Shown here: positions 41,505-50,074 of the stretch, piece after piece | Layout: every line of letters begins with the position of its first letter | Position numbering within the stretch: the first letter of the stretch is position 1 | Source of the DNA: an uncultured Oscillospiraceae bacterium | Lineage (GTDB): Bacteria; Bacillota; Clostridia; Oscillospirales; Oscillospiraceae | Direction of reading: 5' to 3' | DNA: 51,391 nucleotides | Assembly: GCA_934590325.1 (NCBI GenBank) | Contig: CAKTOW010000015.1 | Coordinates: forward strand, 1 to 51,391 | Notes under the pieces: model-generated | Told to the model about the DNA's origin: nothing | Databases searched by the model: none | Seen by the model: only the letters and a program-made list of their open reading frames with translations | Translations under genes and position numbers: made by a program

Positions 41505-42503
41505 ATGGGACACTACATGACGAAAGAGGAACGCATTATCCTGCAGACGCTGCTGGACGAGAAGAAGCCGGTCAGCTACATCGCCCGGAAGCTGGGCTGC
41601 TGCCGCCAGACGGTCTACAACGAGATACGGCGCGGACAGTATCTCCATAACTACGGCTACTATGACAAGCTGCGGTATTCGGCGGACAAGGGGCAGCAGA
41701 TACACGACTACAATCAGACGGCAAAAGGCAGGCCGCTGAAGATCGGCAGCGACCACGCCTTTGCTGCCTACATCGAGCACAAGATCATCGTGGACAGGTA
41801 CTCCCCGGCTGCTGCTCTGGCAGCGGCACGGAAGTACCCTTTTGCTACGAGGATATGTGTCAGTACCCTGTACAGCTACATCGACAAGCGGGTGTTCTAC
41901 AAGTTGGGCAACCGGCACCTATGGGAGAAGTGGAAGAAGCGGCCCAAGAAAACCGAGGACAAGGAGCAGCGGGTAGTACACCCGAAGCTGCCCAGCATAG
42001 AGGTCAGACCGGCGCACATTGACCGACGCGAAGAGTATGGACATTGGGAAATGGACCTGGTAGTCAGCGGCCAGAACGGGAGAAGTGTACTTCTTACACT
42101 GACAGAGCGACTGAGCAGACAGGAGATCATCGTCAAGCTGCCGGACAGGCGGGCGGAGACCATACGCAGGGCCATAGACCGGATGGAGCGCAGGACGCCG
42201 GGCTTCCGGCAGAAGTTCCGGTCTATCACCACCGACAACGGCAGCGAGTTCATGGAGTATGACAAGCTGGTCAAGAGTTGCCGGAGAAAGGGCAGCCGCT
42301 TTGACATCTACTACTGTCACAGCTACTCCGCATGGGAGAAAGGCAGCGTGGAGAACCACAACCGCATGATACGCCGCTTCTTCCCCAAAGGCACCAACTT
42401 TGACGAGGTATCACCGGCAGAGGTACAACGGGTACAAGATTGGATGAATGGGTATCCGCGCAGAGTGTTAGGTTGGCAGACACCCGATGAAGCCGCAGCA
42501 TAG
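41505..42503 (+). CDS. IS30-family transposase
   Basis: A 332-residue DDE transposase: N-terminal helix-turn-helix (SYIARKLGCCRQTVYNEIRRG, split), then the catalytic residues in WEMDLV, TTDNGSEF and WEKGSVENHNRMIRRFFPKG (split), the IS30 pattern. It is the only phage-region gene of this size on the plus strand. Spiroplasma filamentous phages also carry IS30-type transposases, so it may be the phage's integration enzyme rather than a chance IS insertion. It is framed by E2 and E3, giving a unit of 1202 bp. Confidence 0.92.
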   Translation: MGHYMTKEERIILQTLLDEKKPVSYIARKLGCCRQTVYNEIRRGQYLHNYGYYDKLRYSADKGQQIHDYNQTAKGRPLKIGSDHAFAAYIEHKIIVDRYSPAAALAAARKYPFATRICVSTLYSYIDKRVFYKLGNRHLWEKWKKRPKKTEDKEQRVVHPKLPSIEVRPAHIDRREEYGHWEMDLVVSGQNGRSVLLTLTERLSRQEIIVKLPDRRAETIRRAIDRMERRTPGFRQKFRSITTDNGSEFMEYDKLVKSCRRKGSRFDIYYCHSYSAWEKGSVENHNRMIRRFFPKGTNFDEVSPAEVQRVQDWMNGYPRRVLGWQTPDEAAA

Positions 42504-42609: not shown

Positions 42610-43512
42610 TCACTTGCGTATCTTCTTCTGACTTCTCCGCCACTTCCGGGAGGGCTTGACCACACCGTCCATATTGGCCTGCTGCTCGTTCCGGCGCAGG
42701 GAGAGTATCTCCTCCTCAGACAGCATATCGCCCTCCTTGAAGGACTTTTGCAGATTGCCCACACAGGCCAGCGTGTCGTATGCCGCATAGTCCTTGTTGG
42801 TCACGAACCAGCAGCGGCGGGTAAGGGGTGTAAGCAGCTGGGTATTGGTAGCATTCTCCATCTCCCATGCGTCATAGAGGTTCTGACGCTGGAAGCGCCA
42901 CAGCTTATCACAGTCCACCACGCAGCTTGTCACCTGACGGAGCAGCGCGTCCACATGGCCGAAACGCTGGGCGGTGTAGTACATGGAAATGTGGTAGTGG
43001 CGGCAGGTCAGCAGGGTATTGAGGAACAGCGGGTCGATGTTGCTCTTGAAGTTCCGGCTGTTCATCCGGACGCTGAACTCGTCGCCCAGCACCAGTGTAA
43101 CGGTGAGCGTGTCGTGCTCCCTGTCATACTGGCCGTTCTTTTCAGCACAGTAGACCACCTGCTGGAGGGAAACGAAGTCATCATAGGGGATGGACAGCGC
43201 CACATTGGACAGCACCTTGACCCGCTGCTCTACCCACATGGCCCGGTCCTTATCCCAGACCGGCTTACCGTCGTACTGCTCGTACATGGAAACCACCTTA
43301 TGGACGGCGGAGAGTGTCTTGCCCTTGCCGAACAGGCCAACGTAGGCCACCAGCTCGCCGGTCCTGCACTCGTTCCATTTGCGGTACTTGAGATATTGGA
43401 ACAGGTCAACGGTGCCATAGCGTACCAGCTTCACCGGGTGGAAGAACGCACAGCGGATGGTGGGACAGAGCGCCAGCACCAGGCCGAGGGCGATAAGTAT
43501 GATGACCGCCAT
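42610..43512 (-). CDS. Zot/pI-like phage assembly ATPase
   Basis: A 300-residue protein with an N-terminal membrane helix (about 3-20) and a P-loop ATPase domain: Walker A GLFGKGKT at 59-66 and a Walker B-like LVLGDEF. This is the morphogenesis ATPase that drives virion extrusion in filamentous phages. In pI/Zot the helix is usually central or C-terminal; here it is N-terminal. The ATG at 43512 follows GGAGG by 7 nt and lies 1 nt after the previous stop. The C-terminus is very basic. Confidence 0.87.
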   Translation of the reverse strand: MAVIILIALGLVLALCPTIRCAFFHPVKLVRYGTVDLFQYLKYRKWNECRTGELVAYVGLFGKGKTLSAVHKVVSMYEQYDGKPVWDKDRAMWVEQRVKVLSNVALSIPYDDFVSLQQVVYCAEKNGQYDREHDTLTVTLVLGDEFSVRMNSRNFKSNIDPLFLNTLLTCRHYHISMYYTAQRFGHVDALLRQVTSCVVDCDKLWRFQRQNLYDAWEMENATNTQLLTPLTRRCWFVTNKDYAAYDTLACVGNLQKSFKEGDMLSEEEILSLRRNEQQANMDGVVKPSRKWRRSQKKIRK

Positions 43513-43513
43513 A

Positions 43514-43693
43514 TCAGAACCTCCGCCAGTTGACCAGCGCGGCGGCCACAGCCGCCACAATGCGGAACACGGCGGTGACCAGTACCACGGCCACGAATAC
43601 AGTCAGCAGATAGGGTATCAGCTCGGCCATGGTGGTAGGCGGCACGATGTCCACGCCGGTGATCTGGAAGAACTCAGCCACAACAGACGCCAT
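43514..43693 (-). CDS. small phage membrane protein (59 residues)
   Basis: MASVVAEFFQITGVDIV... has a short N-terminal part, one long hydrophobic segment (about 25-52) and the basic tail NWRRF. Start at 43693, with AGGGGGTG upstream; the start codon overlaps the previous stop as TGATG. It is probably a minor coat or assembly protein, judged by size and place in front of the Zot gene. No closer assignment can be made. Confidence 0.75.
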   Translation of the reverse strand: MASVVAEFFQITGVDIVPPTTMAELIPYLLTVFVAVVLVTAVFRIVAAVAAALVNWRRF

Positions 43694-47498: not shown

Positions 47499-47532
47499 GA
47501 GAAAGGGGTATGGGGCGTTCCCCATACCCCTT
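47499..47532 (-). terminator. terminator after the major coat gene
   Basis: AAGGGGTATGGGG-aacg-CCCCATACCCCTT followed on the minus strand by a T-rich tract. In Ff-type phages a terminator directly after gene VIII keeps the coat mRNA far more abundant than downstream mRNAs; the same logic fits here. Confidence 0.82.
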
Positions 47533-47542
47533 GTGTGCGGCA

Positions 47543-47725
47543 TCAGCCGCGGGCAGCGCGCTTGGCCTTGCGGAAGATGGAAAAGCCCAGAGTCACCAGA
47601 CCGGCGCAGATGAACAGCGTCAGAATGGGATTGGCGGTCATGATGTCCCAGACATCACCGACCAGCGTAGCCAGCGTACTGGTGTTACCAAGGATGGTAG
47701 CAATGGTGGTGGAAGCAGCAGTCTC
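47543..47725 (-). CDS. major coat protein (pVIII-like) with GAG start codon
   Basis: A 60-codon frame, GAG-ACT-GCT-GCT..., encoding (start)-TAASTTIATILGNTSTL..., a hydrophobic core (about 34-51) and the basic tail RKAKRAARG: the plan of a filamentous-phage major coat, followed at once by a terminator. No ATG, GTG or TTG lies in frame between the upstream stop TGA (47743-47741) and codon 29. The ribosome site AAGGAGGG (47740-47733) is exactly 7 nt before GAG. The only near-cognate codon early in the frame is ATT at codon 8, 28 nt from the ribosome site. A tRNA with anticodon CUC, complementary to GAG, is encoded 27 nt upstream. I infer that GAG is the start codon. Whether the first residue is Met or Glu cannot be told. 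Confidence 0.75.
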   Translation of the reverse strand, partial: ETAASTTIATILGNTSTLATLVGDVWDIMTANPILTLFICAGLVTLGFSIFRKAKRAARG

Positions 47726-47752
47726 GGCAGTGCCCTCCTTTCATAGATTTGA

Positions 47753-47827
47753 TGGTTGCGGGAGGAGGAGTCGAACCTCCATCTCCGGGGTGAGAACCCG
47801 GCCAGCTACCCTTACTCACATCCCGCC
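47753..47827 (-). tRNA. phage tRNA with anticodon CUC and initiator-tRNA features
   Basis: 75 nt including an encoded CCA. Acceptor GGCGGGA/TCCCGCA pairs at 2:71 to 7:66 but leaves G1 opposite A72 unpaired; discriminator A73. Anticodon stem CCGGG/CCCGG has the three G:C pairs (29-31 with 39-41) of initiator tRNAs; loop TTCTCAC gives anticodon CTC. T arm GGAGG-TTCGACT-CCTCC is canonical. The D arm contains GGTAGCT, as in tRNA-fMet, and can form A11:U24, but one extra base at 8-10 makes it irregular. The 1:72 mismatch with G2-C71, C3-G70, G4-C69 and A11:U24 are the known formylation and initiation determinants. The 3' end CCCGCAACCA equals that of tRNA-fMet. An ordinary tRNA-Glu is the alternative but does not explain these features. 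Confidence 0.72.
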
Positions 47828-47828
47828 A

Positions 47829-47893
47829 TGTAACACACTGCGGTGTTGATCGGCTCGGCGATCCGCGCCGCAGCGTGTCATTGTTGTGTTACA
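47829..47893. repeat. palindromic element E6 (65 bp)
   Basis: Outer arms TGTAACACA and TGTGTTACA; inner hairpins CTGCGG/CCGCAG and GATCG/CGATC. Exactly 65 bp. It ends 1 nt before the tRNA 5' end and supplies the TAA stop of the upstream RHH-like gene (47891-47889). Confidence 0.85.
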
Positions 47894-48185
47894 GCTTTGT
47901 CTCGAACTCCTTGAAGCACTGTTCCAGACCTTTGAGCCGATTTTCAAGGGAGATCATGAATGTCTGTGCGTCACGGTAACGGTCCGAGAGAGCGAAGTAG
48001 CTTTCTTTCGCCTTCTGATACCGCGCCTCCATGTCCCGGAGCTGCCGTTCCTTCTCCGGCAGCAGCATGTAGCAGTTGTAGACCAGGCGCTCGAACTTCT
48101 GGGTGAAGTTATCGCCTACCTGCTGCTCGATGATCTCTATCAGCTCGTCCGAGAACCGGACGGAACGGATGTTGTTCTTTGCCAT
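47889..48185 (-). CDS. ribbon-helix-helix-like protein with coiled coil
   Basis: A 98-residue protein. The N-terminal part (SVRFSDELIEIIEQQVGDNFTQKFERLVYN, split) looks like a ribbon-helix-helix DNA-binding fold; the C-terminal half is a charged coiled coil. GGAGG precedes the ATG by 5 nt and overlaps the end of the 58-residue gene. A phage regulator is likely; it is a candidate to bind the palindromic elements. Its stop codon lies inside E6. Confidence 0.72.
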   Translation of the reverse strand: MAKNNIRSVRFSDELIEIIEQQVGDNFTQKFERLVYNCYMLLPEKERQLRDMEARYQKAKESYFALSDRYRDAQTFMISLENRLKGLEQCFKEFETKL

Positions 48186-48186
48186 G

Positions 48187-48363
48187 TTATCCTCCTATGC
48201 CGGTCTGCAGCCAGTGGAACAGGAACCGTCCCAGCGCATAGGCGAAGCCGCCTATCACGCACCACTTGAGCCTGTCACAAAACCGCATGACCTTCCTCCT
48301 GTACTTGTACCATGCGTGGCGGAGACACCGCCACACGGCGTAGAATATCTGAAACTCGTTCAT
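48187..48363 (-). CDS. small basic phage protein (58 residues)
   Basis: MNEFQIFYAVWRCLRHAWYK... is rich in Arg, Trp and Tyr, with one hydrophobic helix (about 35-50). The ATG overlaps the rep stop as TCAT/ATGA, so it should be translated by coupling. It lies between the replication and RHH-like genes. Function unknown. Confidence 0.68.
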   Translation of the reverse strand: MNEFQIFYAVWRCLRHAWYKYRRKVMRFCDRLKWCVIGGFAYALGRFLFHWLQTGIGG

Positions 48364-49304
48364 GTCATATACCGTCCCGCCATCGCCGAGAGCCTGTCAG
48401 CCTTGTACTGCTGTACCAGCCGGGTATACTTGGGGTTCTCCACCGTGGGACGTTCCCTGATCAGACGCTGGAACTCATGTATGCCGTAGATCTGAAGCAG
48501 GGCGTCTATGGCGTTGCCCGCCTGATTGACCACATACTCACGGCAGCGGTCTATGTTGTAGTCCATGCCCGGTGCCGTATATATCTTGATGGGCGTCAGC
48601 ACCTCCAGCATATCCAGCCAGTAATCCGTCATCTGCCAGCGCCACTTGTTGGTATCGGTATCATCCGGAATGACATACCGAAGGTAGTTCAGCAGCACAC
48701 CGGAGAACGCCTCGCCCACGGTCATGGGTATCTTGGTGAACTGCAGCGCCCGGTCGTCCCGGAGCTGCATCTCTACGCGAACCCAGTGGGTGCCCGGCTC
48801 ACAGTGCCGTTCGGCGGCCTTGTCGTAGATACGGACAAGTACCTTGCTCTGCGGGCTTCCGATCTGCACCGTGGAGCCCTTGGAGCTGAGCACGGTCTCC
48901 CAATAGTCGCTGCGGCTGACGTAATGCTTGCGGCGGGTGTTCTCCACGACTTCGTCTATATCCAGTATGCCGGTGTGGTCATCAAAGGCCACGTCCAGAC
49001 GGGTGATCTTCAGCTGCTGGGCGGCTATCCAGCCGAACAGGTCGTCCCAGCTTTTGGCGGAGAGGGACTCGAACGTCCGGCAGCCTTGACCTGACATCTC
49101 CACCCACACGCCCATATCCTCCCGGCCGTTGTAGTGGACGCTGATGCAGGAGAAGTATTTGCGGTCACGGTAGCCGTGCGCGCCCTTGGTCTCCTGCCAC
49201 GGACAATGGGTAAGCCCCAGCGCTTCTATAAGCTGTTCCGGGGTGTGGTTCTTGCTTGTGAATGAAAGCCAGTCGTAAAGAACGATGTTCTCCTTTCCTT
49301 CCAT
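48360..49304 (-). CDS. phage replication initiation protein (Rep_trans/RstA-like)
   Basis: A 314-residue protein with the motifs of the Rep_trans/RstA rolling-circle group: LYDWLSFT near the N-terminus, KITRLDVAFDDH in the middle, VRIYDKAAER and WVRVEMQL. The catalytic tyrosine is expected in the YDK motif. It nicks the double-stranded origin to start rolling-circle replication of the filamentous phage. AGGGGGT precedes the ATG at 49304. The two stable hairpins just upstream may include the origin. Confidence 0.87.
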   Translation of the reverse strand: MEGKENIVLYDWLSFTSKNHTPEQLIEALGLTHCPWQETKGAHGYRDRKYFSCISVHYNGREDMGVWVEMSGQGCRTFESLSAKSWDDLFGWIAAQQLKITRLDVAFDDHTGILDIDEVVENTRRKHYVSRSDYWETVLSSKGSTVQIGSPQSKVLVRIYDKAAERHCEPGTHWVRVEMQLRDDRALQFTKIPMTVGEAFSGVLLNYLRYVIPDDTDTNKWRWQMTDYWLDMLEVLTPIKIYTAPGMDYNIDRCREYVVNQAGNAIDALLQIYGIHEFQRLIRERPTVENPKYTRLVQQYKADRLSAMAGRYMT

Positions 49305-49937: not shown

Positions 49938-49962
49938 GGGCTTGTAGCTCAGCTGGGAGAGC
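49938..49962 (+). pseudogene. 5' fragment of tRNA-Ala (partial duplicate)
   Basis: The first 25 nt of the intact tRNA at 49999 (GGGCTTGTAGCTCAGCTGGG and 5 more) occur here identically, then the sequence diverges. The copy holds only acceptor 5' strand and D arm, so it cannot be functional. It is a remnant of a duplication or of an element inserted into the tRNA. Confidence 0.8.
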
Positions 49963-49998
49963 AGGCCTGACATATTGCAACGTGACAACTTCATATTC

Positions 49999-50074
49999 GG
50001 GCTTGTAGCTCAGCTGGGAGAGCGTTCGGTTCGCATCCGAGAGGTCGAGGGTTCGAATCCCTTCAGGTCCACCA
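49999..50074 (+). tRNA. tRNA-Ala (anticodon CGC)
   Basis: 76 nt with encoded CCA. Acceptor GGGCTTG/CAGGTCC contains the G3:U70 pair that defines alanine tRNA; D arm GCTC/GAGC; anticodon stem TTCGG/CCGAG with loop TTCGCAT (anticodon CGC, reads GCG); T arm GAGGG-TTCGAAT-CCCTT. It is followed by a terminator. Confidence 0.9.

What the first reader, a model, noticed from the sequence alone, without database searches (positions are those of the whole stretch)
47543..47827. A phage-encoded initiator-like tRNA (CUC) paired with a coat gene that starts on GAG
In one 285-nt block the phage has a tRNA whose anticodon CUC reads GAG and a coat gene whose start position, 7 nt after a strong Shine-Dalgarno, is GAG. 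The tRNA has initiator hallmarks. Together these suggest a private translation-initiation channel: the phage starts its most abundant protein on a codon that host initiator tRNA cannot read. Possible benefits are avoiding competition for host initiator tRNA, making coat synthesis depend on phage tRNA supply, or blocking expression after gene transfer to other contexts. Engineered initiator tRNAs with changed anticodons work in E. coli, so the mechanism is feasible. I know of no natural example.
Basis: partly seen in the sequence, partly recalled or inferred. Interest (0 to 1): 0.98.

Follow-up and report, generated by a model that had tools for sequence, protein, structure and literature searches.

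The report
Phage initiator tRNAs with private start-codons
Filamentous gut phages, this one included, carry a tRNA with an initiator-type end whose anticodon pairs with the odd non-AUG codon (GAG here; CAG, ACG, ACA or ACU in relatives) at the start position of their coat gene; the tRNA is predicted to start the coat protein there, likely with an amino acid other than methionine, and our literature searches found no natural example.

Summary
On the minus strand, tRNA 47827-47753 has anticodon CUC, an unpaired G1·A72 end and an encoded CCA. A strong Shine-Dalgarno follows, then GAG at the start position of a 60-aa coat frame with no ATG, GTG or TTG after the upstream stop.

Of 30 inovirus loci with such a tRNA, 29 have the Watson-Crick cognate codon in frame 6-9 nt after the Shine-Dalgarno: CUC/GAG, CUG/CAG, CGU/ACG, UGU/ACA, AGU/ACU. 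The exception is CGU/GCG. None has a canonical start at spacing 5-10; 12 of 12 control coat-like ORFs do. Among 22 coat clusters 21 match; 0 of 200,000 anticodon shuffles reach that. Sister phages change anticodon and codon together.

Contigs outside the inoviruses show the same: CCU with AGG-starting portal and major head genes, CGU with ACG-starting terminase and portal genes, and GUU/AAC, UGU/ACA and AGU/ACU pairs.

So the private-initiation reading is supported and wider than proposed. Corrections: the GGG/CCC anticodon stem is not general (3 of 34). In 8 of 30 loci a canonical codon lies closer to the Shine-Dalgarno. Charging, formylation and initiation itself are untested.

The parts
47753..47827 (-). 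Initiator-type tRNA, anticodon CUC, G1·A72 unpaired, A73, CCA encoded
   Evidence: ARAGORN; Rfam RF00005 33.9 bits; structure read
47792..47794 (-). Anticodon CUC, cognate of GAG
   Evidence: position 34 of the ARAGORN tRNA, loop TTCTCAC
47741..47743 (-). In-frame TGA stop that closes the coat frame upstream
   Evidence: sequence, counted
47734..47740 (-). Shine-Dalgarno AAGGAGG
   Evidence: sequence; best SD of the frame
47723..47725 (-). GAG at the start position, 8 nt after GGAGG; predicted private start codon
47543..47725 (-). Major-coat-like gene, 60 aa plus TGA stop, no signal peptide apparent
   Evidence: homologues; role as major coat inferred from size, one hydrophobic segment, basic C-terminus and position
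47503..47532 (-). Terminator-like hairpin directly after the coat gene
   Evidence: consensus scan only (2 found in the region, shuffles mean 1.4)
48360..49304 (-). Replication initiation protein of the same phage (context)
   Evidence: PHROG 453, E 4e-31
42610..43560 (-). Zot/pI-like morphogenesis protein of the same phage (context)
   Evidence: PHROGs 20922, 197, 1675

Best explanation
The phage encodes a tRNA with an initiator-type acceptor end whose anticodon, CUC, is the exact complement of GAG at the start position of its coat gene, and this tRNA is predicted to enter the ribosomal P site as an initiator and start the coat protein on GAG, which the host's CAU initiator would not read. 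Shown: the tRNA, the Shine-Dalgarno, the lack of a canonical start in the right place, and the covariation of anticodon and start-position codon across phages. Inferred: (1) the weak 1:72 end lets the tRNA be formylated, kept off EF-Tu and accepted by IF2, as for host initiators; (2) it is charged by the synthetase of its anticodon (Glu or Gln for CUC and CUG, Thr for CGU, UGU and AGU, Arg for CCU, Asn for GUU) rather than by MetRS, which needs CAU; (3) the coat therefore begins with that residue, not methionine. Likely use: coat made without a signal peptide gets a non-methionine N-terminus directly, where relatives would make theirs by cutting a signal peptide; and coat synthesis is tied to the phage's own tRNA. 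In tailed phages, where capsid, portal and terminase genes use the channel, gating of late genes or escape from attack on the host initiator is the more likely use.
For: 29 of 30 inovirus loci carry the Watson-Crick cognate codon in frame 6-9 nt after the best Shine-Dalgarno; none of the 30 has ATG, GTG or TTG in frame at spacing 5-10. Shuffling anticodons: 22 clusters at 90% coat identity, 21 matches, mean 5.9, 0 of 200,000 as good. Covariation inside coat families: L309 UGU/ACA against its sister L313 AGU/ACU; L306 CGU/ACG, L307 and L308 AGU/ACU, L312 UGU/ACA; L019 CUC/GAG against L297 and L298 CUG/CAG; L302 AGU/ACU, L118 UGU/ACA, L020 CUG/CAG. In 14 of 30 no ATG, GTG or TTG lies anywhere between the upstream stop and the cognate codon. 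Controls: 12 of 12 coat-like ORFs without a cognate start have ATG or TTG at SD spacing 5-10. Acceptor end: of 35 tRNAs 28 have no 1:72 pair and 7 read U1/A72 (8 of the 35 came from pattern scans, 7 of these with a mismatch filter). Host initiators from five host genomes have the same GCGGGR/YCCCGCA end. Outside inoviruses: L233 CCU with AGG-starting portal, major head and a third ORF; L217 CGU with ACG-starting terminase and portal. Two annotated homologues of the L233 major head protein start with ATG exactly at the AGG position.
Against: No experiment. L026 (CGU) has GCG, a first-position G·U; an IF3 survey tolerates only Watson-Crick pairs there (abstract of PMC10158994). In 8 of 30 a canonical codon lies between SD and cognate codon, at spacing 0-4: ATG in L019, L303, L309; TTG in L014, L020, L118, L311, L314. 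GGG/CCC, reported as critical for P-site binding (passages of PMC11231383), is found in 3 of 34. With one coat per 50%-identity cluster (7 clusters) 1,498 of 200,000 shuffles match as well. The L217 terminase has a weak SD at spacing 12 and the L233 portal's SD is at spacing 10. L275 has the CAG coat but a tRNA with an extra base in the anticodon loop. Whole-tRNA identity to host initiators is not generally above identity to elongators.
Confidence: 0.9

Rival explanations
1. The coat genes start on ordinary codons by the host initiator (a nearby TTG or ATG, or a leaderless or frame-shifted start), and the tRNA has another job.
For: 8 of 30 loci have an in-frame ATG or TTG between SD and cognate codon; TTG is an accepted start codon.
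Against: Those codons sit 0-4 nt from GGAGG, while 12 of 12 control ORFs have theirs at 5-10. 14 of 30 have no canonical codon at all in frame after the stop, W included. It does not explain why the codon at 6-9 nt follows the anticodon through five pairs.
Confidence: 0.05
2. The tRNA is an elongator or defence-evasion tRNA (codon supply, or replacement of tRNAs cut by host nucleases), unrelated to initiation.
For: Phages are known to carry such tRNAs (passages of PMC10264068). One tRNA type (L297, L298) is 80% identical to an elongator-type tRNA-Gln(CUG) next to the L009 prophage.
Against: 28 of 35 lack a 1:72 pair and none has G-C there. Codon supply predicts no match with the start-position codon, nor the lack of canonical starts.
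Confidence: 0.03
3. The element is a tRNA-like RNA or DNA structure (attachment site, processing or packaging signal) and the codon match is inherited by chance.
For: The window tRNA has a poor D arm and no unusual fold stability. Other tRNAs look like integration sites of such phages (by eye).
Against: Anticodons change together with the codon between sister phages (L309/L313; L306, L307, L312) while the rest stays tRNA-like with CCA. In L008, L020, L118 and several GenBank phages the tRNA lies far from the coat gene.
Confidence: 0.02

Closest known systems
Bacterial initiator tRNA-fMet(CAU)
   Same: Acceptor end GCGGGR/YCCYGC with unpaired 1:72 and encoded CCA, as in host initiators fetched here; the window tRNA also has GGG/CCC.
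   Different: Anticodon is not CAU, so Met charging is not expected; GGG/CCC absent in 31 of 34; encoded by the phage, here beside the gene it would start.
Engineered initiator tRNAs with changed anticodons (amber CUA and others, E. coli and in vitro)
   Same: Same logic: initiator body, new anticodon, cognate non-AUG start codon; shown to work in vitro and in vivo (passages of PMC11231383; abstract of PMC10158994).
   Different: Those are man-made; these are natural, of several anticodons, and covary with the gene.
Phage-encoded tRNAs that supply codons or evade tRNA-cutting defences (PMC10264068, passages)
   Same: tRNA genes in a phage genome; a changed anticodon loop could also escape an initiator-cutting toxin.
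   Different: Here the anticodon fits a start-position codon of virion genes, and the acceptor end is of initiator type.
Inoviruses (Inoviridae)
   Same: Zot/pI-like and Rep proteins, small coat gene, 5-6 kb circular relatives in GenBank.
   Different: Coat start on a non-canonical codon, with its own tRNA; tested relatives without it use ATG or TTG, four of them with a signal-peptide-like leader (L004, L016, L085, L087, read by eye).

Membership tests
Bacterial initiator tRNA | No strong base pair at 1:72 | tested here: met
   Window G·A; 28 of 35 unpaired, 7 U1/A72, none G-C (register uncertain in L311, L314; L118 read by eye)
Bacterial initiator tRNA | Three G-C pairs GGG/CCC in the anticodon stem | tested here: inconclusive
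   Met in the window tRNA; as a group trait not met, 3 of 34
Bacterial initiator tRNA | CAU anticodon and charging with Met | tested here: not met
   Anticodon CUC; CUG, CGU, UGU, AGU, CCU, GUU in relatives; charging not testable
Bacterial initiator tRNA | Purine 11 : pyrimidine 24 in the D stem | tested here: inconclusive
   Read by eye: A11:U24 in the window tRNA and L009, pyrimidine 11 in L008, L014 and L020 (D regions)
Bacterial initiator tRNA | Formylated, bound by IF2, kept from EF-Tu | not testable with these tools
   needs biochemistry
Works like an engineered non-AUG initiator tRNA | Anticodon cognate to the start-position codon | tested here: met
   29 of 30 inovirus loci; 9 ORFs of 6 types outside inoviruses
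Inoviridae | pI/Zot-type morphogenesis ATPase, Rep, small coat with one hydrophobic segment | tested here: met
   PHROGs 197, 1675, 453; coat homologues
Elongator tRNA | Paired 1:72 end | tested here: not met
   G·A in the window tRNA

The most novel reading that the evidence does not exclude
Phages of several kinds have taken their virion genes off the universal start signal: each carries its own initiator tRNA with a reassigned anticodon, the matching start codon on coat, capsid, portal or terminase genes, and these proteins begin with Glu, Gln, Thr, Arg or Asn instead of methionine. This would be a natural exception to methionine-started translation and a private, evolvable start code that switches codon by paired anticodon/codon changes.
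Probability: 0.65. Interest if true: 0.99.

Novelty: categorically new. Interest (0 to 1): 0.97.

Why it matters
[quoted passage not shown] A natural initiator tRNA that reads another codon would break that rule, add a regulatory layer to phage gene expression, explain coat and capsid genes that gene finders mis-start or miss (predicted coat proteins appear to start inside the tRNA), and offer evolved, ready-made orthogonal initiator/start-codon pairs for protein engineering. It also makes the question of what a bacterial ribosome needs from an initiator testable on natural variants, since most of these lack GGG/CCC.

Tried and rejected
Coat protein alone as query in viral contigs found no relative (27 stretches matched a pattern, none confirmed), nor did the Rep alone; Zot gave 6 loci, none with a phage initiator-type tRNA. 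The Rep alignment worked. A loose tRNA pattern over 400 genomes of one family matched in 68 genomes; by eye of the listed matches these were nearly all not tRNAs, and one new locus came of it (L118). A viral pattern scan restricted to GCGGGATGG gave four contigs with tRNAs and no case. Whole-tRNA identity to host initiators versus 16 elongator-type tRNAs did not settle descent. Terminase N-termini were mixed: P0173 (MQTINW) fits an ACG start of L217 exactly, but most listed relatives that cover this end begin one or more residues earlier, and the best phage relative starts three codons earlier, so I do not lean on them. P0162 (coat relative with Thr near the start position) could not be assigned an anticodon from protein alone. 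L155 could not be judged (contig edge); L168 was my parser misreading a CAU tRNA. The L232 anticodon register is uncertain (C at 33). I first misread L309 as ACU from its protein; the DNA shows ACA.

Rows dropped before counting: L275 (tRNA loop damaged), L057-L061, L108, L109 and L131 (same places as loci already counted), and controls L031 and L084 (no anchor given to the script). Not fetched: non-inovirus BLAST hits and the 33 unlisted records.

Full report
What is there. The window holds an inovirus prophage read on the minus strand: Rep at 49304-48360 (PHROG 453, E 4e-31) and a Zot/pI-like protein at 43560-42610. Between them lie a tRNA with anticodon CUC at 47827-47753, a Shine-Dalgarno AAGGAGG at 47740-47734, and a 60-codon coat-like frame that opens with GAG at 47725-47723. 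TGA lies in frame upstream, with five sense codons between it and GAG, and no ATG, GTG or TTG among them. The tRNA has G1·A72 unpaired, GGG/CCC in the anticodon stem and an encoded CCA. Its D arm is poor, its Rfam score is modest (33.9 bits), and its fold energy is not unusual. No whole genome is held for the window.

Finding relatives. A Rep alignment of 22 rows (21 of the 120 listed homologues plus the window) fetched 42 loci from bacterial and archaeal genomes and 9 from viral contigs. ARAGORN over 57 sequences (56 loci and the window) showed tRNAs with CUC, CUG or CGU in nine that proved to carry the phage coat gene (W, L007, L008, L009, L014, L015, L019, L020, L026). A tRNA pattern over 400 genomes added L118. 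A pattern scan of IMG/VR added L271 and L290. BLAST of three of these tRNAs against GenBank phages added 18 inovirus records, chosen by tRNA similarity only (fetched). That makes 30 loci.

The covariation test. For each coat frame I took the best Shine-Dalgarno upstream and listed the in-frame codons 5-10 nt after GGAGG, without using the anticodon. In 29 of 30 one of the two codons is the exact Watson-Crick complement of the anticodon: CUC/GAG (5), CUG/CAG (9), CGU/ACG (8), UGU/ACA (3), AGU/ACU (4). Spacing is 6-9 nt, mostly 7 or 8. None of the listed codons is ATG, GTG or TTG. The exception, L026, has CGU and GCG, which would need a G·U pair in the first codon position. Clustering coats at 90% identity leaves 22; 21 match, shuffled anticodons give 5.9 on average, and 0 of 200,000 shuffles reach 21. 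With one coat per 50% cluster (7) all match, but so do 1,498 of 200,000 shuffles; with one per cluster and anticodon (16) 15 match and no shuffle does.

Paired changes between relatives are the most telling. L309 and L313 are in one coat cluster at 90% identity: UGU/ACA and AGU/ACU. L306, L307/L308 and L312 share a coat family: CGU/ACG, AGU/ACU, UGU/ACA. L019 and L297/L298: CUC/GAG and CUG/CAG. L302, L118 and L020: AGU/ACU, UGU/ACA, CUG/CAG.

Ordinary starts. In 14 of 30 loci no canonical start codon lies in frame anywhere between the upstream stop and the cognate codon. In 8 of 30 an ATG or TTG lies between the SD and the cognate codon at spacing 0-4, so for those an ordinary start is not excluded by sequence. 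As control, 12 coat-like ORFs were tested: 10 in nine loci in which no such tRNA was found (L002, L004, L016, L017, L037, L056, L085, L086 twice, L087) and two paralogues inside tRNA-bearing phages (L118, L310). All 12 have ATG or TTG at spacing 5-10 (the script looked for canonical starts, a slightly different scoring; L085 and L087 are weak coat matches, E 0.055 and 0.58). L118 and L310 thus appear to make one coat on a canonical codon and one on a private codon.

Beyond inoviruses. IMG/VR was scanned for tRNAs with the initiator acceptor GCGGG. The second scan (63 stretches) was aimed at other anticodons; 11 loci of seven types had a non-CAU anticodon and unpaired 1:72. One type, L155, ends at the edge of the held DNA. 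L271/L290 are inoviruses counted above. In four types the ORF right after the tRNA opens on the cognate codon: L254 UGU/ACA (493 aa), L232 UGU/ACA (561 aa; anticodon register uncertain), L258 and L272 AGU/ACU (313 aa), L149, L227 and L285 GUU/AAC (333 aa in L149); the four representatives tested have no PHROG match. In L233 (CCU) the next gene starts with ATG, but three later ORFs open on AGG: a portal (PHROG 156, E 9.5e-21), a major head protein (PHROG 422, E 2.1e-25) and one unknown, with the next canonical codon in frame only at codon 76, 78 and 26. L217 (CGU, first scan) has a terminase (PHROG 2) and a portal (PHROG 533, E 3.1e-77) that open on ACG. The L233 and L217 genes were found by looking for the cognate codon or at ORF ends, a biased look; the L217 terminase has a weak SD at spacing 12 and the L233 portal's SD is at spacing 10. 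Independent support for L233: the annotated major capsid gene of Dulem virus 31 and a gene of Streptococcus phage Javan246 start with ATG exactly where L233 has AGG (MAINLAEKY and MAVNYAAKF against RAINLHEKD).

The tRNAs. Of 35 compared, 1:72 is G·A in 17, C·A in 8, A·A in 2, U·C in 1 and U/A in 7 (register uncertain in L311 and L314; L118 read by eye); none has G-C (8 of the 35 came from pattern scans, 7 of these with a mismatch filter). Host initiators of five host genomes have the same acceptor. GGG/CCC is present in 3 of 34. The discriminator base splits by anticodon among inoviruses: A73 in 14 of 14 CUC/CUG tRNAs, C or U in 16 of 16 CGU/UGU/AGU tRNAs (L118 by eye). This fits charging by different synthetases, but does not show it. 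L297 and L298 tRNAs are 80% identical to an elongator-type tRNA-Gln(CUG) with A1:U72 and G73 beside the L009 prophage: some of these initiators may have been made from elongators.

How it would work. The weak acceptor end would let the tRNA be formylated and taken by IF2; its anticodon would place it on GAG after the strong SD; the coat would begin with the amino acid charged. Feasibility rests on engineered systems: initiator tRNAs with new anticodons start proteins in vitro and in vivo (passages of PMC11231383), and IF3 asks for Watson-Crick pairs at the first two codon positions (abstract of PMC10158994). The same passages call GGG/CCC critical for P-site binding, which most of these tRNAs lack: an open problem. 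That MetRS needs CAU, and that initiators with other anticodons are charged by the synthetase of the anticodon, is recalled knowledge. Purpose is inference. Four control coats (L004, L016, L085, L087) have a signal-peptide-like leader (read by eye), while these coats show none, so a non-Met N-terminus made directly is one likely gain. For tailed phages, gating of late genes or escape from initiator-cutting toxins is likelier; a toxin of that kind, VapC acting on tRNA-fMet, is named in PMC10264068 (passages).

Literature. Seven searches of open-access PubMed Central listed no paper that by title or start of abstract describes a natural initiator tRNA with a changed anticodon and matching start codon. 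The inovirus survey PMC6813254 has two mentions of tRNA, both on attachment sites in the passages seen, and none of start codons. Preprints and most subscription journals were not searched.

Verdict. The pairing is real and recurrent; private initiation is by far the best explanation (0.9). Open are the charged amino acid, the actual start and the purpose.

Noticed in passing
window 49939-50074: tRNA-Ala(CGC) at 49999-50074 is preceded by a partial copy of its 5' end; looks like the attachment site at the prophage end (read by eye).
   Followed up: no
window 47828-47900: A GTAACACA...TGTGTTAC inverted repeat lies between the gene after Rep and the tRNA; L008 has a similar hairpin there. Possible origin or packaging signal (by eye).
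   Followed up: no
window 41505-42503: ORF that looks like an IS30-type transposase (recalled, no call) near the Zot-like gene; L001 has a related ORF.
   Followed up: no
L118 12231-12649; L310 3818-4231: Two coat paralogues side by side, one opening on the private codon and one on ATG (L118) or TTG (L310).
   Followed up: partly
GenBank inovirus records L306, L307, L308, L312: Annotated CDSs overlap the tRNA; no tRNA is annotated in the 18 fetched records (feature tables).
   Followed up: partly
P0123-P0126, P0128-P0131, P0133, P0137, P0145, P0146, P0161: Predicted coat proteins in public databases appear to start inside the tRNA and read through to the true start (MEVR..PQP.. leader); mis-started gene calls.
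   Followed up: partly
L275: Coat with CAG at the start position, but a tRNA with one extra base in the anticodon loop; sequencing error or decayed tRNA.
   Followed up: no
L297 4409-4482 and L009 minus-strand tRNA: The phage initiator-type tRNA is 80% identical to an elongator-type tRNA-Gln(CUG) beside a related prophage; possible origin from an elongator.
   Followed up: partly
L080, L081: Viral contigs with CAU initiator-type tRNAs and unpaired 1:72: phages that carry an ordinary initiator.
   Followed up: no
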